A stretch of 64,000 nt of DNA from Peristeroidobacter agariperforans (GTDB taxonomy: Bacteria; Pseudomonadota; Gammaproteobacteria; Steroidobacterales; Steroidobacteraceae), in contig NZ_RYFW01000001.1 in assembly GCF_004138335.1 (NCBI RefSeq), forward strand, positions 2,356,001 through 2,420,000, given 5' to 3'. Below, one piece after another: positions 54,342 to 64,000 of the stretch (positions are counted from its first letter, which is position 1; each line of letters opens with the position of its first letter). The notes under the pieces were generated by a model. The model saw only the letters and a program-made list of their open reading frames with translations, did not search any database and was not told the DNA's origin. The position numbers and the translations under genes are program-made.

Positions 54342-54898
54342 GGACTGCGCGGCGTGATCAACAGGGTGTGGCGCTGATCGTCTCGCTGGTTCTGCTCGTG
54401 GTGGCGACGCTCATCGGACTCGCTGCCGTGCGGGGCACCAGTCTGCAGGAGCACATGAGCGCCAATATGTATGATCGCTCGCTCGCGTTTCAGCGCGCCG
54501 AATCGGCGTTGCGTGCAGCCGAAGTCGCGATCCTGGCCAATGGCCGCATCGACGCTCTGGGAGGTGTCGATTGCCGGGCCGTGACCGGTGTGACTTGCCC
54601 GGTGATCCCCGATAACACCTTTACCGGCACCAGCGCGAACTGGGTCGCTGTCGACCGGGATCACGCTGTGAACAGCGGCAAGACGCCGGGCACGCCGGAA
54701 TATTTCATCCAGTTCATGGGCACGGGCCCCGCCCAGAGCAGTTTCGATCTGGAAGCGAATGCCGACTCTGCCGCGTACGGCGCGACTACGTATCAAGGCG
54801 TCGCCTACTATCGAATCACCGCGCGCAGCAGCGCTCCCGCCGACGCCGCCGACCGATCCATTGTCGTGCTGCAATCCACCGTCAAGCGTGCGTATTGA
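54338..54898 (+). CDS. pilX: Type IV pilus minor pilin PilX
   Basis: A 186-residue protein. RRDQQGVALIVSLVLLVVAT is the PilX leader with hydrophobic helix, lacking Glu+5 as usual for PilX/GspK-like tips. RGTSLQEHMSANMYDRSLAFQRAESALRAAE is strongly characteristic. It overlaps pilW by 4 bp, and pilY1 begins 22 bp later. Confidence 0.92.
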   Translation: MRTARRDQQGVALIVSLVLLVVATLIGLAAVRGTSLQEHMSANMYDRSLAFQRAESALRAAEVAILANGRIDALGGVDCRAVTGVTCPVIPDNTFTGTSANWVAVDRDHAVNSGKTPGTPEYFIQFMGTGPAQSSFDLEANADSAAYGATTYQGVAYYRITARSSAPADAADRSIVVLQSTVKRAY

Positions 54899-54920
54899 CG
54901 TGGCGCAAATCGAGGTCGTC

Positions 54921-57900
54921 ATGCCGGTGTTGGTGAAACTTCGCTACGCGTTGGCGGGTACGCTTCTGACCGTTCTCGCCGGCGCCGCGAGCGGTCAAAC
55001 GGCGAGCAACACGGTCGCGCAGTCACCGCTCACCGTCGCAGGCAATGTTCCCGGCAATCTGCTGCTGGTGCCATCGGTCGAGTACCCGACGCTCGACAGC
55101 ATGGCGAATCTCGGCAACTACGACGTAGCGCGTGCCTACACCGGCTACTTCGATCCAGCCAAATGTTACAAGTATTCATACAGCACGACTGAAACGAATC
55201 GATATTTCTATCCGGTTGGCAAGACCACGACCCGTACCTGTAGCAGCAGCTTGCAGCAGTGGAGCGGCAACTATCTGAACTGGGCGACGACCCAGACCAT
55301 CGATCCGTTTCGCAAGGCGCTGACCGGCGGTCATCGAGTGAAGGACGAGGCCGGCGTGACCTGGTTGGAAAAGGCGCGCTACGACGGCAATGGCGCCAAC
55401 AGTTTGTTTCCGAATCGGCGCATCCCGGCGAGCGGCAGCGGTTCCAGCCTGGTGAGTGGCGCAACCCCGGCCAACTGGAGCGATTTCACCTATCGCATCT
55501 GGACCCTCGGCAACCGCATGCGCTTCACCCGATCGGGCAATCTCAATTCGGATCCCGTCGTTGCCTACGATCCATCGACGCACACGTCCCTCGACGGCTC
55601 TAAGGTTTATGAAGTCAGCGTCCGCGTGAAGGTGTGCGACTCGAACATCGGCGTCGAGAGCAACTGCGTGCAGTACTCTTCGGGCTGGAAGCCCGAAGGC
55701 CTGATCCAGAAATATTCCAGCCGGATCCGCTACAGCGTGTTCGGCTACCTCAACGACAGCAGCATCCTGCGCGATGGCGGCGTGTTGCGCGCCCGCCAGA
55801 AATTCGTGGGCGAATACAAGCTGGATCCCGCCAGCAATCTGCTGGTCGCGAACGGCAACCGCGAGTGGGATCCGAGCACCGGCATCCTGGTGCAGAACCC
55901 GGATGCAGCGGATGCTGCCGCGACGGCGGGCGTGGTCGGCCAGGCTATCAACTACAGCGGCGTGATCAACTACATCAACCGATTCGGCCAGATGACCACG
56001 CAGGATCACAAGAGCTACGACCCGGTGAGCGAGCTCTATTACGCGGCTATTCGTTATCTGAAAGGCCAGGGAAACGTGTCCGAATACAGCGCGCTGAGCG
56101 GCACTTCCTCGCAGCGCTTCAACCATGCGGACGGCTTCCCCGTGATCACCGACTGGGACGATCCCATGCAGTACAGCTGCCAGAACAACGCGCTGCTCGG
56201 CATCGGCGATGTGAACACCCACCGCGACAAGAATCTGCCGGGCAGCAATACCACGACCGACGAGCCGACCCGCCCGGGCGCCGTTTCTTCCGACAAGTCC
56301 GTGAACGTACTGACGGCGACGCAGAAGGTGGCGCAGCTCGAAGGCATCACGATCCCGACGCCTTTTACCGGTCGCGAGAACTCCGCGTTCATCGCCGGCC
56401 TCGCTTACGACTCGCACACCCGGGATTTGCGGCCGGATCTGGACGACAAGCAGACGGTCTCGACCTATTGGGTGGACGTGCGCGAGGCCCAGGTGCTCGA
56501 GCCCAGAGCACGCAATCAATACTGGCTCGCGGCCAAGTATGGCGGCTTCAACGTGCCGGAGGACTACGAGCCGTACCAGCAGACCAAGGCGCTCGACACC
56601 ACGTTGTGGAGCAGTGGCGAAACGCTCTCGACCGGCGACCTGCGGCCCGAAAATTTCTATGTCGCGAGCGAAGCGGACAAGATGGTCGAAAGCCTGACGC
56701 GTGCCTTCGCAAAGATCGCCGCCGAAACACAGGGCGCGGGAACTGCGTTGTCTTCGACCTCGAGTCAGCTGCAAACCGATACGCAACTCTTCCAGGCGGT
56801 GTTCTACAACGGCACGTGGCGTGGCGATCTGCGTGCGTACGAGCTGGATGACAAAGGCAGGGTCTCGAGCAGCCCGCTGTGGTCTGCCGGTGTGAAACTG
56901 ACCGCGCGCGATTGGACGACGCGGCGGATCTATGTCCACAACCCACAAGGCAACAACGCAGACGCGAAGTACGCTGCCTTCAACTGGGACAACCTGGGAT
57001 CCACCCAGAGGACTGCGCTGGGATCGGCGGACGTGGTGGATTACTTGCTAGGCGATCGTAGCAAGGAGGAATCGCAGGCAAATGGCGCCTTGCGAACGCG
57101 TACCGGCTTGCTCGGCGACATCGTCAATTCCAGCCCGGTCTACGTGGCTGCACCGAATGCGGCGTTGTATGAGCGCGCTTCGTTCACCGGCGCGTCATCC
57201 TACGCGAAGTTTGCGCAGGACGTAGCCGATCGAACTCCCGTCATCTATGTGGGCGCGAACGACGGCATGTTGCACGGGTTCGACGCCGGCGCCGTCGAGG
57301 CCGAGCAGGGCCAGGAGACCTATGCCTTCGTGCCCAACAGCGCGATCGTCAATGGCCTGGGCTCATACAGCGATCCCGCCTACGAGCATCGCTATTTCGT
57401 CGACGGCGAAATGGTCGTGACCGATGTCTACGACAAGGGCTGGAAAACCATTCTGGTCGGCACTATGGGGCGCGGCGGTCCAGGAGTGTTCGCGCTGGAT
57501 GTCACCGATCCGGACAGCGTGAAATTCCTGTGGGAGAAGAGCGGCGCCGACATTCCATCTTTGGGCAAGAACATCGGCCGTCCCGTCATTGCTCAAGTCG
57601 CCGACGGCGAATGGCGCGTGATCCTGGGCAACGGGCACGCCACGTCGGCAGGTTCGGCGCAGCTCATCATGATCGATGCGATAACCGGTGCTGTGACGAC
57701 AGCCGACACTGGTGCGACCGGCGGCAATGCACTCAGCGCGGTGCTGGCCCGGGACGTTGATGGCGACCGCATTTCCGATGTCGCGTACGCGGGCGATCTG
57801 AAGGGCAATCTCTGGAAGTTCACCGGCCTCGCCAGCAAGCCGAGCGCAACCAAGATGTTCCAGGCGCGCGATCCGAGCGGCAATGCTCAGCCGATCACCG

Positions 57901-58589
57901 CCGCTCCGATCGCTGGTCGGGATCCGTCGACCGGCGCGGTCTGGGTATTCTTCGGCACCGGACGTTACTTGAATGCCGCCGATCTGAACGACCGGCAGGT
58001 GCAGTCCTGGTACGGCATCAAGGACAACAATGCCAGCACCGCGACGCGCAGCGACCTGGTGCAAAGAAACATCATCGCCGAGTCGAAACGCGACGACTTG
58101 ACGCTGCGAGCCGTCGAGGACGGCTCGGTCGGCGATCTGGCCGGCAAGCGCGGTTGGTACATGGATCTGGTTTCGCCAGGGCGCGCGCCGCGAGGCGAGC
58201 GCGTCATCGTGCCAAATCAGTTCGTGGGCACGGCGTTGCTCGCAACCACGCGCATTCCCGAAGCGGCCGACATCTGCAAGCCGACCGGTACCGGCTTCAT
58301 CATGGCGATCGATCCATTCACCGGCGCGCGTCTGCCTGACACCTTCTTCGACGTGAGCCGCGACGGCAAATACACCGAGGTGGACCACATGCCGGTGGAG
58401 TCCGGCTCGAACAGTTCGCAGGTCCTCGTGGTCTCCGGTGTCGCAATCGGCAACGCCATCGCTGGCCAGACGACGATTGTCGGCAGCGAGATCGACTTTC
58501 AAACCACCGGCGGCGTCATGGATCAGCTGGGATTCCAGGTGCCCGCCACCGCCGCCGGCCGGATGAGCTGGCGCGAGATCGTGAACTGA
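54921..58589 (+). CDS. pilY1: Type IV pilus tip adhesin PilY1
   Basis: A 1222-residue exported protein with a signal peptide (1-27, ending GAASG). The N-terminal half is variable with adhesin character; the C-terminal half (from ~700) is a PilY1 beta-propeller: GDIVNSSPVYVAAPN, VIYVGANDGMLHGFDA, VGTMGRGGPGVFALDVT and WVFFGTGRYL. DVDGDRISD is a DxDxDxxxD calcium loop like the one controlling pilus extension in Pseudomonas PilY1. There is no von Willebrand A domain evident at the N terminus. ATG at 54921 has GAGG 5 bp upstream. Confidence 0.94.
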   Translation: MPVLVKLRYALAGTLLTVLAGAASGQTASNTVAQSPLTVAGNVPGNLLLVPSVEYPTLDSMANLGNYDVARAYTGYFDPAKCYKYSYSTTETNRYFYPVGKTTTRTCSSSLQQWSGNYLNWATTQTIDPFRKALTGGHRVKDEAGVTWLEKARYDGNGANSLFPNRRIPASGSGSSLVSGATPANWSDFTYRIWTLGNRMRFTRSGNLNSDPVVAYDPSTHTSLDGSKVYEVSVRVKVCDSNIGVESNCVQYSSGWKPEGLIQKYSSRIRYSVFGYLNDSSILRDGGVLRARQKFVGEYKLDPASNLLVANGNREWDPSTGILVQNPDAADAAATAGVVGQAINYSGVINYINRFGQMTTQDHKSYDPVSELYYAAIRYLKGQGNVSEYSALSGTSSQRFNHADGFPVITDWDDPMQYSCQNNALLGIGDVNTHRDKNLPGSNTTTDEPTRPGAVSSDKSVNVLTATQKVAQLEGITIPTPFTGRENSAFIAGLAYDSHTRDLRPDLDDKQTVSTYWVDVREAQVLEPRARNQYWLAAKYGGFNVPEDYEPYQQTKALDTTLWSSGETLSTGDLRPENFYVASEADKMVESLTRAFAKIAAETQGAGTALSSTSSQLQTDTQLFQAVFYNGTWRGDLRAYELDDKGRVSSSPLWSAGVKLTARDWTTRRIYVHNPQGNNADAKYAAFNWDNLGSTQRTALGSADVVDYLLGDRSKEESQANGALRTRTGLLGDIVNSSPVYVAAPNAALYERASFTGASSYAKFAQDVADRTPVIYVGANDGMLHGFDAGAVEAEQGQETYAFVPNSAIVNGLGSYSDPAYEHRYFVDGEMVVTDVYDKGWKTILVGTMGRGGPGVFALDVTDPDSVKFLWEKSGADIPSLGKNIGRPVIAQVADGEWRVILGNGHATSAGSAQLIMIDAITGAVTTADTGATGGNALSAVLARDVDGDRISDVAYAGDLKGNLWKFTGLASKPSATKMFQARDPSGNAQPITAAPIAGRDPSTGAVWVFFGTGRYLNAADLNDRQVQSWYGIKDNNASTATRSDLVQRNIIAESKRDDLTLRAVEDGSVGDLAGKRGWYMDLVSPGRAPRGERVIVPNQFVGTALLATTRIPEAADICKPTGTGFIMAIDPFTGARLPDTFFDVSRDGKYTEVDHMPVESGSNSSQVLVVSGVAIGNAIAGQTTIVGSEIDFQTTGGVMDQLGFQVPATAAGRMSWREIVN

Positions 58590-58606
58590 GCTTGCAGGCA
58601 ATGACT

Positions 58607-59026
58607 ATGAGATATGAACCGATGGGCCGACGCGCGACCGGCATGACGTTGATCGAGCTGATGGTCGTCATGGCGATCGTCGCCATCCTCACCGCGATCG
58701 CGTATCCGTCGTATCGGTCGCACGTCGCGAAGACCCACCGCAAGGCCGCCGCGGCGTGCCTGTCGCAGTATGCGAACTTCATGGAGCGCTACTACACGAC
58801 GAATCTCAGCTATGAAGGCGCGAAGCCCGATCTCGCCTGCCGCACGGAGAGCGACTTGAATCGCTTTTATACGTTTCCTGAGCCGGAGATCGGCGAGAAT
58901 TCGCGCTCGTACACCGTCAGCGCCATTCCCACCGACGCCCAAAAAGACACCGATCCCAGTCACTGCGGCGAGCTGAGCCTGGATCAGAGGGGCGGCCGCG
59001 AGCCCAAGGACGACGCGTGCTGGTAA
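58607..59026 (+). CDS. pilE: Type IV pilus minor pilin PilE
   Basis: A 139-residue minor pilin. RRATG|MTLIELMVVMAIVAILTAIA has Gly-1, Met+1 and Glu+5, then YPSYRSHVAKTHRKAAAACL and FMERYYTTNLSYEG, as in PilE at the end of fimU/pilVWXY1E clusters. The ATG at 58607 has AGG 8 bp upstream; 58601 is an alternative. It closes the operon. Confidence 0.9.
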   Translation: MRYEPMGRRATGMTLIELMVVMAIVAILTAIAYPSYRSHVAKTHRKAAAACLSQYANFMERYYTTNLSYEGAKPDLACRTESDLNRFYTFPEPEIGENSRSYTVSAIPTDAQKDTDPSHCGELSLDQRGGREPKDDACW

Positions 59027-59036
59027 GGCGAGGCCC

Positions 59037-59057
59037 GGTCACCGATCGCCGGTGACC
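59037..59057. terminator. Stem-loop between pilE and the opposing hydrolase
   Basis: GGTCACCG / CGGTGACC form a perfect 8-bp stem with a 5-nt loop, beginning 11 bp after the pilE stop and overlapping the last codons of the convergent hydrolase. No T-run. Confidence 0.4.
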
Positions 59058-60049
59058 AGCTCCCACACTGCGGCAGCGAACTCTTTCGGCGCCTCTTCCG
59101 GCAGGTTGTGACCTGCGCCTGCGATGATGCGATGTGAGCGCGGCCCGGTAAATTTCTTCGCCGAGGCCGTGCCGTCGGTCGCCGGCACCACACCGTCCGC
59201 TGCGCCATCGAGCGTGATCGTCGGCACACCGATCGCTGGCAGCGCTGCCAAGCGCTGCTCAACGGCCTCGTACTGCGCGTATCCCGGCGCAAGACCGAGT
59301 CGATGCCGATAGGAATGAATCACCACATCGACATAGTCCGGATTGTCGAAAGCCGCGGCGTGTCGGGCCAGGATGGCTTCATCGAAGCGCCAGTTCGGCG
59401 AGTTGCGGGTCCACAGGGTTTTCGCGATCTCGCGACGATGGGCGGTCAGACCGGCGCGGCCGCGCTCGGTTTGAAAGTAGTACTGGTACCACAGCCCCGA
59501 CTCGATGGCCGGTGACAACGGCTTGTCGGCATTTGCGATGTCTTGAATGAGATAGCTATTCACGGACACGAGGCCACTGCAACGCTCTGGCCACAGCGCG
59601 GCTGCGACGCAGGCCGCGCGTCCACCCCAGTCGTAACCCGCAAGCACGGCGCGCTCGATCTTCAGTGCATCCATCAGGTCGACCACGTCAACGCCGATGG
59701 CAGCTTGCTGACCGGCGCGCGGCGTTGTGCTGTCGAGAAAGCGCGTTGAGCCATGTCCGCGCAGATAAGGAACAATCACTCGAGCGCCGCGTGCTGCGAG
59801 CATCGGCGCGACATCGACGTAGCTGTCGATGGAGTAGGGAAACCCGTGCAGCAACAGGACGGCCGGGCCGTTGCTCGGCCCGGTCTCGGAGTAACCAACG
59901 CTCAGCATACCCGCCTTGATCTGCTTGTTTGCAACCAGGGGCGGATTGGCGGCGTGCGCAGTTGTCATGAGTGCGATCTTCGATGTGAGGACCGCGGCTG
60001 CAGTCGTCGCGAGAAAGCCGCGGCGGGTGTGTGAGAACGGGTGACTCAT
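59039..60049 (-). CDS. Tat-exported alpha/beta hydrolase with Asp nucleophile
   Basis: A 336-residue alpha/beta hydrolase. The N-terminal TRRGFLATTAAAVLTSKIAL is a twin-arginine signal. LLLHGFPYSIDSYVDVAPML contains the oxyanion-hole HG; the nucleophile elbow reads GYDWGG, Asp in place of Ser, as in epoxide hydrolases and haloalkane dehalogenases. A C-terminal GAGHNLPEE gives the catalytic His. Epoxide hydrolysis is therefore more likely than ester cleavage; the substrate is unknown. It lies 8 bp downstream of a second hydrolase, probably co-transcribed. Confidence 0.88.
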   Translation of the reverse strand: MSHPFSHTRRGFLATTAAAVLTSKIALMTTAHAANPPLVANKQIKAGMLSVGYSETGPSNGPAVLLLHGFPYSIDSYVDVAPMLAARGARVIVPYLRGHGSTRFLDSTTPRAGQQAAIGVDVVDLMDALKIERAVLAGYDWGGRAACVAAALWPERCSGLVSVNSYLIQDIANADKPLSPAIESGLWYQYYFQTERGRAGLTAHRREIAKTLWTRNSPNWRFDEAILARHAAAFDNPDYVDVVIHSYRHRLGLAPGYAQYEAVEQRLAALPAIGVPTITLDGAADGVVPATDGTASAKKFTGPRSHRIIAGAGHNLPEEAPKEFAAAVWELVTGDR

Positions 60050-60057
60050 GTCGCAGG

Positions 60058-60816
60058 TCAGTGATTGGTCGCAGCGGCGATGATGACGTCCGCGACTTCC
60101 TTGGGATGGGAAACCATCGGCACGTGACTGCTCGGCAGTGTCGTCACCTTCGCATGAATCTTCTGCGCGGTCTTGGACTCGTATGCCGGCTGGATCATGT
60201 GATCCTTGCTCGCCACGATGTACCAGCTCGGCCTGGTTTCCCAGGCAGCCGCCGTGATCTTCTCATCGAAGCTCGCACCACGAATCGGACCTTGAGTGAT
60301 CGCGATCAGGTTGGCTTCTGCTGGCGTTACGTCCTGCGCGAAGTCGCTCGCGACCGCTTCGGCCGGCAGCGAGAGGAATCCCGCCGGGTCGGCTACGAGC
60401 TTGGCGATGCCCGGCGGAGTTTCGTAATTCTTGCCTTGATCGGCGCTCGATTCGCCCTTGGACGGCGCAAACGCGGCGACATACACCAGCGCTTTCACCT
60501 TGTCGTGGTTGCCCGCCTCGGTGATCACGGTGCCACCCCAGGAATGGCCGACCAGCACCACGTTGCCCGAAGCGTTGTCGATGGCGCGGCGAGCGGCGGC
60601 GACGTCGTCCGCCAGCGAGGTCAACGGATTCTGCACCGAAATCACTTTCAGGCCGCGAGCCTGCAGCTTCGGAATGATCTTGTTCCAGCTCGAGCCATCG
60701 GCAAACGCGCCGTGCACCAGCACGACCGTAGTGTCGGCGGCGCTCGCCGAAGCGAACGGCACATGGGCGAGAAATGCGGCCGCGGCCAGGAAACGAAGTA
60801 ACGGACGACGAATCAT
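60058..60816 (-). CDS. Exported alpha/beta hydrolase (EstC-like)
   Basis: A 252-residue alpha/beta hydrolase with a signal peptide (1-27, ending ASASA|AD). LVHGAFADGSSWNKIIPKL is the oxyanion-hole region, GHSWGGTV the Ser nucleophile elbow, SKDHMIQP gives an acid residue and SSHVPMVSHP the His. This short form resembles EstC/salicylate-esterase-like (plant methylesterase-type) enzymes. It is the first gene of a two-hydrolase operon. Confidence 0.88.
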   Translation of the reverse strand: MIRRPLLRFLAAAAFLAHVPFASASAADTTVVLVHGAFADGSSWNKIIPKLQARGLKVISVQNPLTSLADDVAAARRAIDNASGNVVLVGHSWGGTVITEAGNHDKVKALVYVAAFAPSKGESSADQGKNYETPPGIAKLVADPAGFLSLPAEAVASDFAQDVTPAEANLIAITQGPIRGASFDEKITAAAWETRPSWYIVASKDHMIQPAYESKTAQKIHAKVTTLPSSHVPMVSHPKEVADVIIAAATNH

Positions 60817-60950
60817 ATGCGCTCCTCTATGAAAATCAGCGGGCGCTCATTGCAGCGGCGGTGTGTATCCGGCGTGTGTGGTTGGCCCGCGGCTGCGTGT
60901 TGCTTCGTTTCCACGGCGGCCGCGGATACGTTCGGATACAATCGCCGTCC

Positions 60951-61928
60951 ATGAAAACAGTCGCCTCCGACTCCGGCCGCACGAAGTCCTGGCGTGCCGC
61001 GTTGGTCGATCGTCAAGACGAGCTGTGGCAACGAGTACGCGAGCATGGCGAGCAGCGCCGCCAGCACCTTTCCGAGCGGGCCACCGGAGTGTTGGCCGAT
61101 GCCGTTCAGTGGCTCGCCGAGCTGCCGGAGCACTCTATCCACGCGGTGGTGACCGATCCACCCTACGGCATCGTCGAATTCGAGGAGAAGGATCATCGCA
61201 AGCTGCGAGCAGGTCGCGGCGGCGTGTGGCGCATCCCTCCGTCTTTCGATGGCGCGAAGCGCAGCCCCCTGCCGCGCTTCACAGTGCTCTCGCAGGAAGA
61301 AGTCAGCGCGCTATATAACTTCTTCGGGGCGCTGGCTTACGGATTGAATCGTGCGCTCGTGCCTGGCGGACACGTGTTCCTCGCGTCCAATCCTTTGCTG
61401 TCCACGATGACGTTTCATGCCTTCCAACGTGCCGGTTTTGAAAAGCGCGGCGAAGTCATCCGGCTCGTGCAGACTTTACGTGGTGGCGACCGCCCCAAAG
61501 GCGCGGAAAAAGAATTCTCCGACGTGTCGATGATGGCCCGCTCGTGCTGGGAGCCGTGGGGCGTGTTCAGAAAACCGTTCGAAGGCACCGCGGCGGATAA
61601 CTTGCGCAAGTGGGGCACCGGGGGTTTGCGTCGAATCTCAGGCGAAGAACCCTTCAAGGACGTCATCACCTGTTCGCCGACGCGCGGCGCCGAGCGCGAG
61701 ATTGCTCCTCATCCATCGCTCAAGCCGCAACGTTTCCTGCGCCAGGTCGTGCGTGCGGCACTGCCTCTGGGGCTCGGCATCGTTTATGACCCATTCGCCG
61801 GCAGCACCTCGACACTCGCCGCGGCCGATCATCTGGGTTACCTCTCCATTGGCACGGAACGCGATGTGACATACTTCGCGATGGGCTGCAAAGCATTCCC
61901 GCAATTGAAGGCGCTGACGCTCGGCTGA
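60951..61928 (+). CDS. Orphan site-specific DNA methyltransferase (beta order)
   Basis: A 325-residue amino-DNA methyltransferase. TDPPYGI at 68-74 is catalytic motif IV; the SAM-binding motif I (YDPFAGSTSTLAAA) lies later, near residue 280, so the order is the permuted beta class of N6-adenine or N4-cytosine enzymes. HPSLKPQRFLRQVVRAALP before motif I is motif X. No restriction enzyme or specificity subunit is beside it, so it is probably an orphan regulator-type enzyme. TACAAT at 60937-60942 is a good -10 box only 8 bp before the ATG, so its mRNA may be nearly leaderless. Confidence 0.85.
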   Translation: MKTVASDSGRTKSWRAALVDRQDELWQRVREHGEQRRQHLSERATGVLADAVQWLAELPEHSIHAVVTDPPYGIVEFEEKDHRKLRAGRGGVWRIPPSFDGAKRSPLPRFTVLSQEEVSALYNFFGALAYGLNRALVPGGHVFLASNPLLSTMTFHAFQRAGFEKRGEVIRLVQTLRGGDRPKGAEKEFSDVSMMARSCWEPWGVFRKPFEGTAADNLRKWGTGGLRRISGEEPFKDVITCSPTRGAEREIAPHPSLKPQRFLRQVVRAALPLGLGIVYDPFAGSTSTLAAADHLGYLSIGTERDVTYFAMGCKAFPQLKALTLG

Positions 61929-62045: not shown

Positions 62046-64000
62046 ATGAGACGCCTAAGACTAGGGAGGGCGTGGGCCGTGCTCGCGGCTGCGCCCATAT
62101 TGTTGATCGCTCAGGGAGCAAACGGGCAGGCCTTGCCGTTGCTCGATCAGGCATCGATTCGCTCGCCGTTGATGGCGGGCTGTAATGGCAAGCCGGACAA
62201 TACGCCGCTGCCGGTGGATCCGCGCTCGCTGGTGACAGCGGCCGTGAATACCAATCCGAACGCGGCGATTCAGTTCAACGCTCCTTTCGTCGATCTACAC
62301 AATCCACCGCCGCCGTTCCTGAATCGTCTGCCGCCACGGCCGAGGACGTGCGGGGAGTTTCGCGCGAGCGCCACTCGCGGACGGATCAATCTCGAGGAGC
62401 GTCAGTTCTTCCTGCCGATGGCGCTGGCGGTCAGCTATCACTTCATCTACCAGCAATGGGGTTATCTGGTGCGTCCGCCAGATTTCGAAGAGCAGGTGGC
62501 CAAGCGTTATGGTTTGTATCCTGCGCCGTTCCGCAATCCCTATCCGCTGCCGGGCGAGGATCCGAACCAGACCAATGGCGGCAGCGGCCAACTGCCATTG
62601 GGCCTGATTCAAGGCAAGGACGACAACGGCAAGTGGACGGGCCTGATCGGCGCGTCCTGCTCGGCATGTCACGACTCTCGCCTGGGCACCGCAAGCGAAG
62701 CGCCGTTCAAGTGGGGTCTGCCCAACAGTGCGAACGATGCCGGATTGCTGGCATCGGATCTGTTCCGGACCACCCCGATCACATCGCTGGGTAATTTGTT
62801 ACCTATTCCCTGGAGCAATGGTCGCGGCAGCTCGGATGCGATCGGTCTGATCTCGCTGCTGCCCGCACTGTTCGACATGGAAACCCTGACGTTCGCGCCA
62901 AGCCCGCTCGAGTATGTCGCCGACAGTCCGCATGGAGGCATGACCAAGGCGCCGGCCTGGTGGGCGAGAGCGTTCAAGACACGCCAGTTCTGGGATGGCT
63001 CGTTGTCATCGGACAACGTGCACTCGGAGATGGCGTTCGGTGTCGCGAATCTGTTCCGCGATGCCACCATGCGCCGTAACCTCGAAGATGAGTTCGAGGA
63101 CATCAACAATTTCCTGATCTCGCTGTCGCCGGCGACCTATCCAAAAACAATCAACACGGCGCTGGCGGAGCAGGGCGCGGTGATCTATCACGAGCGCGAT
63201 CTGTGGGCGGGTACCGTGAATGGGGCCATTCCCAAGCCACCTGGCAACGGATCGTGCGCGAGCTGTCATGGCGTCTATTCGCCGCGGCATGCAGCAGACC
63301 CCAACTATCTGCCCGATCCTCGTTTGAAGGGCGTCGCCGCCGTGGTGACACCGATCGAAACGATCCGCACCGATCCGCAGCGTATGAAGCTGATGGCGGA
63401 CGAGCGCAGCCGCCGGGCTTGGAACAGCAGTTGGTGGGCGTACAACAGTCTCAGCCCGGACTTCACTGGCTACCCATCGGATAGCATCGTCGAGAGCGAG
63501 CTGCGTCGCGTGCCACGCGCCATCTATAACAATGGTGGGCCGATCTATTCGCCGCTCGGACCCAATATCTGGGAGGAGCCGATCGGCTACATCGCACCGC
63601 CGCTGTATGGTGCCTGGGCGACGGCTCCGTACTTCCACAACGGCAGCGTGCCGAATTTGTGGGGCGTGCTGAAACCGGCGGATCGTCCGAAGGTGTGGAA
63701 GCGTCCGTACACTGCGCCTGGCGTGTTCGGCAAGAACGCCGGCTACGATTACAGCTTCGCGTCCTACGATTGGCAGAAGCTGGGTTGGAAGTACACGTCG
63801 GTGAATTGCAGCAACAACATCTTCACCTCGCCGTTCCTGCCTTGCACGGCCGGCATGGCGACCATCGATATCATCTATTCGATGTGGGACAACGTGGCGG
63901 CTCAGTATCTGAACCTGGCGTACCAGGTCCCGCCGCCGGTCACGGATCAGCAGATCAAGTCGCGCATGGTCTATAACAGCTACCTGTACGGCAACGGCAA
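62046..64000 (+). CDS. roxA: RoxA-type dihaem rubber oxygenase (3' end cut by window)
   Basis: An open frame of 651 codons running off the right edge with no stop. A signal peptide (about 1-28, ending ANG|QA) precedes two c-haem sites: CSACH at 205-209 and CASCH at 404-408, spacing 199. RoxA of Steroidobacter cummioxidans 35Y, as I recall, has the same two motifs at 191 and 390. With a constant +14 offset, RoxA haem-pocket residues Ala251, Ile252, Leu254, Ile255, Phe301, Trp302, Ala316 and Phe317 all match (Ala265, Ile266, Leu268, Ile269, Phe315, Trp316, Ala330, Phe331). APYFHNGSVPNLWGVL is the MauG/peroxidase-family block. RoxA cleaves poly-cis-isoprene outside the cell. About 40 residues, including the expected distal His, lie beyond the edge. 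RoxB cannot be fully excluded. Confidence 0.82.
   Translation, partial: MRRLRLGRAWAVLAAAPILLIAQGANGQALPLLDQASIRSPLMAGCNGKPDNTPLPVDPRSLVTAAVNTNPNAAIQFNAPFVDLHNPPPPFLNRLPPRPRTCGEFRASATRGRINLEERQFFLPMALAVSYHFIYQQWGYLVRPPDFEEQVAKRYGLYPAPFRNPYPLPGEDPNQTNGGSGQLPLGLIQGKDDNGKWTGLIGASCSACHDSRLGTASEAPFKWGLPNSANDAGLLASDLFRTTPITSLGNLLPIPWSNGRGSSDAIGLISLLPALFDMETLTFAPSPLEYVADSPHGGMTKAPAWWARAFKTRQFWDGSLSSDNVHSEMAFGVANLFRDATMRRNLEDEFEDINNFLISLSPATYPKTINTALAEQGAVIYHERDLWAGTVNGAIPKPPGNGSCASCHGVYSPRHAADPNYLPDPRLKGVAAVVTPIETIRTDPQRMKLMADERSRRAWNSSWWAYNSLSPDFTGYPSDSIVESELRRVPRAIYNNGGPIYSPLGPNIWEEPIGYIAPPLYGAWATAPYFHNGSVPNLWGVLKPADRPKVWKRPYTAPGVFGKNAGYDYSFASYDWQKLGWKYTSVNCSNNIFTSPFLPCTAGMATIDIIYSMWDNVAAQYLNLAYQVPPPVTDQQIKSRMVYNSYLYGNG

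What the first reader, a model, noticed from the sequence alone, without database searches (positions are those of the whole stretch)
62046..64000. RoxA-type rubber oxygenase at the window edge
Two CxxCH motifs with the exact RoxA sequences (CSACH, CASCH) and exact 199-residue spacing are seen. Eight haem-pocket positions I recall from RoxA mutational work match with a single constant offset. Rubber oxygenases of this type are rare and taxonomically narrow. The gene starts just after an orphan methyltransferase, with no latex-clearing-protein gene in view.
Basis: partly seen in the sequence, partly recalled or inferred. Interest (0 to 1): 0.85.

Follow-up and report, generated by a model that had tools for sequence, protein, structure and literature searches.

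The report
Rubber-cutting enzyme RoxA, complete and genuine
The gene at the window's edge is a complete copy of RoxA, a known enzyme that cuts natural rubber, in what is probably an agar-eating soil bacterium, and its surroundings point to candidate genes for poorly known later steps of rubber breakdown.

Summary
Confirmed: the ORF at 62046 is a RoxA. The genome extends it to 676 residues, stop 76 bases past the edge. It is 90% identical to crystallised RoxA of strain 35Y, passes NCBIfam's RoxA cut-off, groups with RoxA at full support and keeps 12 of 12 residues checked. By exact genome size the organism is probably Steroidobacter agariperforans KA5-B. New member of a known kind.

Close homologues of four of these genes occur in 3 of 3 rox-carrying and 0 of 11 rox-less genomes of the genus; the carriers are not one clade. 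At least two of four beta-oxidation families lie by 12 of 17 RoxA genes, against 1 of 18 RoxB genes. These are testable candidates for the aldehyde-oxidation and later steps. Activity is inferred, not shown.

The parts
62046..64000 (+). roxA coding sequence, first 651 of 676 codons; the rest lies past the window edge (stop ends at G000:C9:2420076)
62046..62129 (+). N-terminal positively charged/hydrophobic stretch, presumed Sec signal (MRRLRLGRAWAVLAAAPILLIAQGANGQ); no signal predictor was run
   Evidence: sequence; the 4b2n chain begins inside this stretch
62658..62672 (+). haem-1 motif CSACH, residues 205-209 (RoxA35Y H195), active-site haem
62991..63038 (+). haem-1 pocket: W316 (W302 in 35Y) to F331 (F317 in 35Y)
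63255..63269 (+). haem-2 motif CASCH, residues 404-408 (RoxA35Y H394)
63627..63653 (+). MauG motif PYFHNGSVP, residues 528-536

Best explanation
The gene encodes RoxA, a secreted dihaem c-type dioxygenase. By homology with RoxA35Y, dioxygen bound at the N-terminal haem (His209 proximal, Phe331 stabilising the oxygen) attacks double bonds of poly(cis-1,4-isoprene) in exo fashion and releases the C15 product ODTD; the bis-His C-terminal haem is less important. Shown here: identity, completeness, conserved catalytic residues, purifying selection, and a RoxB partner in the same genome. Inferred: secretion, haem loading, activity and product. Further inference: RoxB makes new chain ends; an OxiAB-like molybdenum oxidase encoded directly upstream of roxB turns the aldehyde into the acid; and the ligase, LCAD-like acyl-CoA dehydrogenase, hydratase, FadB-like and thiolase genes beside roxA degrade the acid by beta-oxidation.
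For: Only PDB match at E<=0.001 is 4b2n, 1428 bits; 595 of 660 aligned residues identical; NCBIfam RoxA 1277 bits against cut-off 1000; RoxA clade 100/100; 12 of 12 key residues; dN/dS 0.07 against the S. agaridevorans roxA, one pair; RoxB paralogue 1072 bits against cut-off 900. Context: acyl-CoA dehydrogenase >=83%, kinase >=75%, OxiL >=82% and MpaB-like >=77% identity only in the 3 rox-carrying genomes of 14 in the genus, which are not one clade on RpoB (AU p 5e-41); at least two of four beta-oxidation families in 12 of 17 RoxA loci against 1 of 18 RoxB loci.
Against: No activity, expression or secretion data. No report that this species clears latex was found: 3 papers hold its name and 'rubber'; one mentions rubber only in its reference list, one only as stoppers, and the 35Y paper does not say so in the parts read. 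The downstream genes are assigned by neighbourhood only. Most downstream enzymes of myxobacterial RoxA loci are distant from these (about 30-47% identity). Five of 17 RoxA loci have fewer than two of the four families in the DNA held (one is cut by a contig end). TonB receptors are not more frequent by RoxA than by RoxB (4 of 17, 4 of 18), and the OxiL pair is by 3 of 18 RoxB genes, all Steroidobacteraceae.
Confidence: 0.9

Rival explanations
1. A RoxC-type or other Rox-like protein without rubber oxygenase activity, acting for example on unsaturated lipids.
For: RoxCs share the fold and motifs, and two tested RoxCs showed no rubber cleavage (unpublished data cited in PMC10837239, section read). 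NCBIfam RoxC also aligns (625 bits).
Against: It is below the RoxC cut-off (900) and above the RoxA cut-off; it keeps W302 and F317 equivalents, which the RoxCs tabulated lack; its first Cys is residue 46, so there is no lipobox-like Cys after the leader; it groups with RoxA35Y at 100/100.
Confidence: 0.03
2. An ordinary dihaem cytochrome c peroxidase or MauG.
For: Weak CCP_MauG (E 7.5e-4, below gathering score) and a sub-threshold NCBIfam peroxidase hit (114 against 150).
Against: Full-length 90% identity to RoxA35Y; 676 residues; all RoxA residues checked. PMC6311187 (section 8) states that RoxA35Y has no peroxidase activity.
Confidence: 0.01
3. A genuine RoxA gene, but one not used for rubber in this organism: its natural substrate is another polyisoprenoid in plant or soil matter, and the neighbouring beta-oxidation genes serve general fatty acids.
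For: The species (if KA5-B) was described as an agar degrader needing partner bacteria (PMC7966939, passages); no rubber growth test was found. Several neighbours are generic beta-oxidation families.
Against: Close homologues of the acyl-CoA dehydrogenase, kinase, OxiL and MpaB-like genes are absent from the 11 rox-less congeners, so they track rox and do not look like housekeeping genes.
Confidence: 0.15

Closest known systems
RoxA of Steroidobacter cummioxidans 35Y (PDB 4b2n)
   Same: Full length, 90% identity, both haem motifs, the Phe/Trp pocket, distal His, MauG motif; congeneric organism with a RoxB partner
   Different: About 10% of residues differ; activity not measured; the genes around roxA in 35Y could not be compared because its genome did not turn up in the collections searched
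RoxB (35Y, NS21) family, NCBIfam NF050034
   Same: Same family at large; the paralogue on contig C11 is a RoxB (CHACH, Val at the Trp302 position)
   Different: The window gene is 40% identical to that RoxB in the alignment and carries the RoxA residues
OxiAB of Streptomyces sp. K30 (literature)
   Same: Heterodimeric molybdenum hydroxylase with a putative Tat signal on one subunit (OxiB), proposed to oxidise oligoisoprene aldehydes (PMC9782182 passages; that it is encoded beside lcp is recalled)
   Different: Here the pair is beside roxB in a Gram-negative; homology to K30 OxiAB was not tested; best PDB match is 8gy3, large subunit of an aldehyde dehydrogenase (its organism, Gluconobacter, is recalled)
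Lcp / MpaB / Nro1 superfamily (PF09995)
   Same: The roxB-locus protein P0003 matches PF09995 (E 2.5e-48) and has an R-xxx-T pair (R78, T82) followed by conserved His residues
   Different: 305 residues, no visible leader, no PDB sequence match at E 1e-3; conserved His stand 5 and 26 after T82, none 30 after as in LcpK30; not a demonstrated Lcp

Membership tests
RoxA rubber oxygenase | Scores above the curated NCBIfam RoxA model cut-off over full length | tested here: met
   1276.8 bits, cut-off 1000, residues 8-676
RoxA rubber oxygenase | Haem motifs CSxCH and CASCH | tested here: met
   CSACH 205-209, CASCH 404-408
RoxA rubber oxygenase | F317 and W302 equivalents and hydrophobic pocket | tested here: met
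   F331, W316 and six other pocket positions identical to 4b2n; all 17 RoxA proteins tabulated have both F and W
RoxA rubber oxygenase | Bis-His C-terminal haem (H394/H641) and MauG motif | tested here: met
   H408, H655, PYFHNGSVP
RoxA rubber oxygenase | Groups with characterised RoxA in a tree | tested here: met
   18-row clade with 4b2n, support 100/100, 54-row tree
RoxA rubber oxygenase | Secreted, Sec signal | tested here: inconclusive
   Leader-like N-terminus seen; no predictor run
RoxA rubber oxygenase | Cleaves polyisoprene to ODTD; oxygen bound to haem as isolated | not testable with these tools
   needs purified protein
RoxB | CHACH motif, Val at the W302 position, above RoxB cut-off | tested here: not met
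   CSACH, Trp; 503 bits against 900; met instead by the C11 paralogue
RoxC | Lipoprotein Cys, loss of F317/W302, above RoxC cut-off | tested here: not met
   F and W kept; 625 bits against 900; first Cys is residue 46
Dihaem cytochrome c peroxidase / MauG | Above curated peroxidase cut-off | tested here: not met
   113.9 bits against 150; CCP_MauG 20.6 against 25.6
Latex clearing protein (for P0003 beside roxB) | DUF2236/PF09995 domain | tested here: met
   165.6 bits, cut-off 23
Latex clearing protein (for P0003 beside roxB) | Export signal, and R164/T168/H198 with LcpK30 spacing | tested here: not met
   no leader visible by eye; R78/T82 spacing fits, conserved His at +5 and +26 after T82 and none at +30 (LcpK30 residues from PMC6311187 passages)

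The most novel reading that the evidence does not exclude
The two rox loci together form a dedicated rubber-use system: RoxB works with a Tat-exported molybdenum aldehyde oxidase (OxiLS), a TonB receptor for oligoisoprenoid uptake and an intracellular b-haem MpaB/Lcp-superfamily oxygenase that cuts imported oligoisoprenoids, while the roxA-linked LCAD-like dehydrogenase, thiolases and ACAD11-like kinase finish the methyl-branched, keto-ended acid. This would supply the missing aldehyde step and an unsuspected intracellular cutter in Gram-negative rubber degraders.
Probability: 0.3. Interest if true: 0.65.

Novelty: new member of a known kind. Interest (0 to 1): 0.45.

Why it matters
It adds a near neighbour of the best-studied RoxA, probably in a cultured type strain, and predicts rubber use in species for which no such report was found. 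More usefully, the linked genes are concrete candidates for steps the literature calls open in Gram-negatives: the paper on 35Y says the enzyme oxidising the ODTD aldehyde remains unknown (PMC5979037, section read), and PMC9782182 says such genes in Gram-negative bacteria have not been characterised (passages, partly cut).

Tried and rejected
Structure prediction of RoxA from a 21-row alignment gave mean pLDDT 39 and was not used; no fold search was run.

Plasmid-borne roxA: tblastn against 72,556 plasmids gave only 6 weak hits, five annotated as dihaem peroxidase and one as c-type cytochrome, 25-26% identity.

Levulinyl-CoA idea for the kinase beside roxA: complete beta-oxidation of ODTD acid should leave a 4-oxopentanoyl-CoA end (my own derivation). 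The kinase's best PDB match is 9o56, an 'aminoglycoside phosphotransferase', and the next is ACAD11, over its N-terminal part, which PMC11342911 describes as a kinase acting on 4-hydroxyacyl-CoAs (passages). But the cluster's acyl-CoA dehydrogenase is closest to LCAD, ACAD11 is not among the 60 of 117 PDB hits shown, and the genome has no PF19802 member (that PF19802 is LvaB is recalled). Kept only as a weak lead.

OxiLS as a universal partner: rejected. OxiL lies in the Rox loci of only the 3 Steroidobacteraceae among 47 loci; 5 of 19 other Rox genomes searched, all myxobacterial, have a 48-49% homologue outside the Rox loci examined.

Not enriched by RoxA against RoxB, of 19 families counted: TonB receptor, AraC, LuxR, SDR, MpaB-like, OxiL, OxiS, the two kinase families, SCP2-type thiolase and FMN oxidoreductase (p 0.1 or more). 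No correction for 19 tests or for kinship was made.

Two rpoB trees read wrong frames and were discarded; one search is the valid one. The first gene caller chose antisense frames in GC-rich DNA and was replaced. In one search the reference row was by mistake P0001 joined to P0002 because the file holds both; residues were read also from the row of the window's RoxA alone, and identity was recomputed. For the same reason the Rox rows were gathered with both proteins as queries. In one search I set the oxiS start three bases off its ATG, so the gap printed there between oxiS and oxiL is wrong; one search shows the ATG at L005:9891, touching the oxiL stop.

Full report
OBSERVATION. The frame at 62046 runs off the window end. 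The window is G000:C9:2356001-2420000 of a 7,651,871-base genome in 17 contigs. The gene ends 76 bases past the edge and codes for 676 residues.

IDENTITY. phmmer against the PDB finds one sequence at E<=0.001, 4b2n (RoxA of strain 35Y), 1428 bits over residues 16-676; BLAST gives 595 of 660 identical. NCBIfam: RoxA 1277 bits (cut-off 1000), RoxC 625 (900), RoxB 503 (900), dihaem peroxidase 114 (150). In a 54-row maximum-likelihood tree of Rox proteins (rows of 450 residues or fewer dropped; loci L041 and L044 not entered) the protein falls in an 18-row RoxA clade with 4b2n, support 100/100, next to S. agaridevorans (97%), then 35Y, then Povalibacter uvarum (80%). The tree programme warned of long branches, mainly outside this clade. 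All 12 residues checked, taken from PMC10837239 (sections read), are identical to 35Y at offset +14. CSxCH with W302 and F317 equivalents is shared by all 17 RoxA proteins tabulated; the RoxB clade has Val at W302. Between this roxA and that of S. agaridevorans dS is 0.207, dN 0.015, ratio 0.07 (my own Nei-Gojobori script), which fits purifying selection.

DISTRIBUTION. One scan of the 84,980-species genome collection, limited to two peptide patterns, returned 41 Rox loci, 14 of them RoxA-type (61% or more) in Steroidobacter, Povalibacter, Microbulbifer, Parahaliea, Burkholderia, Minicystis, Corallococcus, Hyalangium and two MAGs named only to class or family. Searching the genomes of 19 of those loci added RoxA in the genomes of Nannocystis exedens and Myxococcus dinghuensis. 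In the window's own family full-length RoxA occurs in 3 of 217 genomes, each also with RoxB: the window genome, G168 and G180; the other 11 genomes with a match have short pieces only. Strain 35Y itself did not appear in the collections searched.

THE ROXB LOCUS. The genome's only other full-length Rox gene is on contig C11: RoxB 1072 bits against 900. Same strand, directly upstream, lie a [2Fe-2S] subunit (49 bases away) and, touching it, a molybdopterin subunit. The latter has a Tat-like TTRRRFLQ stretch near its start (no predictor run) and matches over residues 70-731 of 734 the large subunit of an aldehyde dehydrogenase, 8gy3. Outward from it follow a TonB-dependent receptor (+), a LuxR-type regulator (-), a PF09995 MpaB/Lcp-family protein (+, P0003) and an AMP-ligase (+). 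The same families are found by roxB in S. agaridevorans and Povalibacter, in partly different order. A Polyangia MAG (Myxococcota; L025) carries beside its RoxB an MpaB-like protein of 62% identity to Povalibacter's and 59% to the window genome's, and in the same locus a kinase 61% identical to the one beside roxA here. Another MpaB-family protein, Nro1 of Gordonia, was reported to act on nitrile rubber, with a spectrum suggesting b-haem (PMC12724181, abstract and passages).

THE ROXA LOCUS. Beyond the window edge roxA is followed by kinase, enoyl-CoA hydratase and a thiolase-like gene (minus strand), then an FMN oxidoreductase-type gene, FadB-like, acyl-CoA dehydrogenase, AMP-ligase and a CoA-ligase of the acetate/succinate type (plus strand), then a thiolase (minus strand). 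In Povalibacter roxA sits inside the same cluster at another position. In Microbulbifer the nearest homologues of the dehydrogenase (76-80%) and ligase (60-61%) lie upstream of roxA. In Corallococcus, Hyalangium and Myxococcus dinghuensis an aldehyde dehydrogenase (Pfam tested for one), FadB-like, thiolase, two dehydrogenases and a ligase lie beside roxA. Counting acyl-CoA dehydrogenase, AMP-ligase, FadB-like and thiolase in the DNA held, 12 of 17 RoxA loci have at least two families, against 1 of 18 RoxB loci (Fisher p 8e-5; the 12 and 1 were counted by me from the list). The DNA held is mostly 8-10 kb a side; contig ends cut some loci, and the window's own locus has 2 kb upstream and 14 kb downstream, where three of the four families lie within 10 kb. 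Dehydrogenase alone is 14 of 17 against 1 of 18, but two of the 14 are distant homologues (26-29%) some 7-10 kb away. Loci are related to each other and 19 families were tried, so p is indicative only. The dehydrogenase tree puts six copies, from the three Steroidobacteraceae and three Microbulbifer RoxA loci, together at 100/100, apart from the best copy of each of the 11 rox-less congeners; a second M. mangrovi copy and all myxobacterial copies fall elsewhere. This looks like repeated recruitment, not one inherited cluster.

CO-OCCURRENCE. Among 14 genomes of the genus, best identities in the three rox carriers against the best hits elsewhere are: dehydrogenase 100/98/83 against 56 or less (whose list of weaker matches was cut); kinase 100/96/75 against 32 or less; OxiL 100/94/82 against 35 or less over full length, with short pieces up to 43; MpaB-like 100/93/77 against no match at E<=0.001. 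An RpoB tree of 13 of the 14 (G178 lacked rpoB) places Povalibacter with rox-less G179, and the other two in a group with rox-less G170, G171 and G174; holding the three together is rejected (AU p 5e-41), and the fewest changes of rox state on that tree are 3. The genes therefore come and go with rox in at least two lineages, or were moved together.

READING. RoxA identity is as secure as sequence can make it; activity is inferred. The linked genes are proposed as the downstream pathway: oxidation of the aldehyde by OxiLS, activation by ligase, beta-oxidation by the cluster. Steps shown: presence, linkage, co-occurrence. Steps inferred: substrates, order, cell compartment.

LITERATURE. In PMC10837239 (sections 4 and 8, passages), PMC6311187 (sections 7 and 8, passages) and PMC5979037 (section 18 parts 1-2 of 3, passages) I saw no description of these linked clusters; passage searches there for aldehyde, molybdenum, TonB, operon and neighbour terms gave hits, none about such linkage. 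Library searches were made; of most papers listed I saw the listing only. Supplements and subscription papers were not available, so prior description cannot be excluded.

Noticed in passing
L050:1399-2313 (G000:C11:537665-538579): Leaderless PF09995 MpaB/Lcp-superfamily protein in the roxB locus; in 14 genomes of the genus found only in the three rox carriers, and a 59-62% identical copy stands beside RoxB in a Polyangia MAG.
   Followed up: partly
L005:9427-12095 (C11): Molybdenum aldehyde-oxidase pair with Tat-like leader directly upstream of roxB; homologues of 82% or more only in rox carriers of the genus.
   Followed up: partly
L008, L011, L013, L015, L019, L021, L040, L134: A zinc-type alcohol dehydrogenase plus GXWXG/DUF4334 protein pair recurs by roxA in 8 of 17 RoxA loci, in both gene orders (Pfam of one pair); function unknown.
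   Followed up: no
window 54759-59026: PilY1 beta-propeller protein (PF05567) followed by a type IV minor pilin of the ComP family (PF16732).
   Followed up: no
window 60774-61928: Lone N6/N4 DNA methylase gene 117 bases upstream of roxA; conserved there in S. agaridevorans, not matched in the Povalibacter roxA locus held, so probably not part of the rubber system.
   Followed up: partly
window 59039-60816: Two alpha/beta hydrolases side by side, minus strand, with leader-like N-termini by eye.
   Followed up: no
G000:C9:451837-451947 (L049, L075): A further, distant protein matching only the MauG-motif segment of RoxA (49% over 37 residues) in a 756-codon open frame.
   Followed up: no
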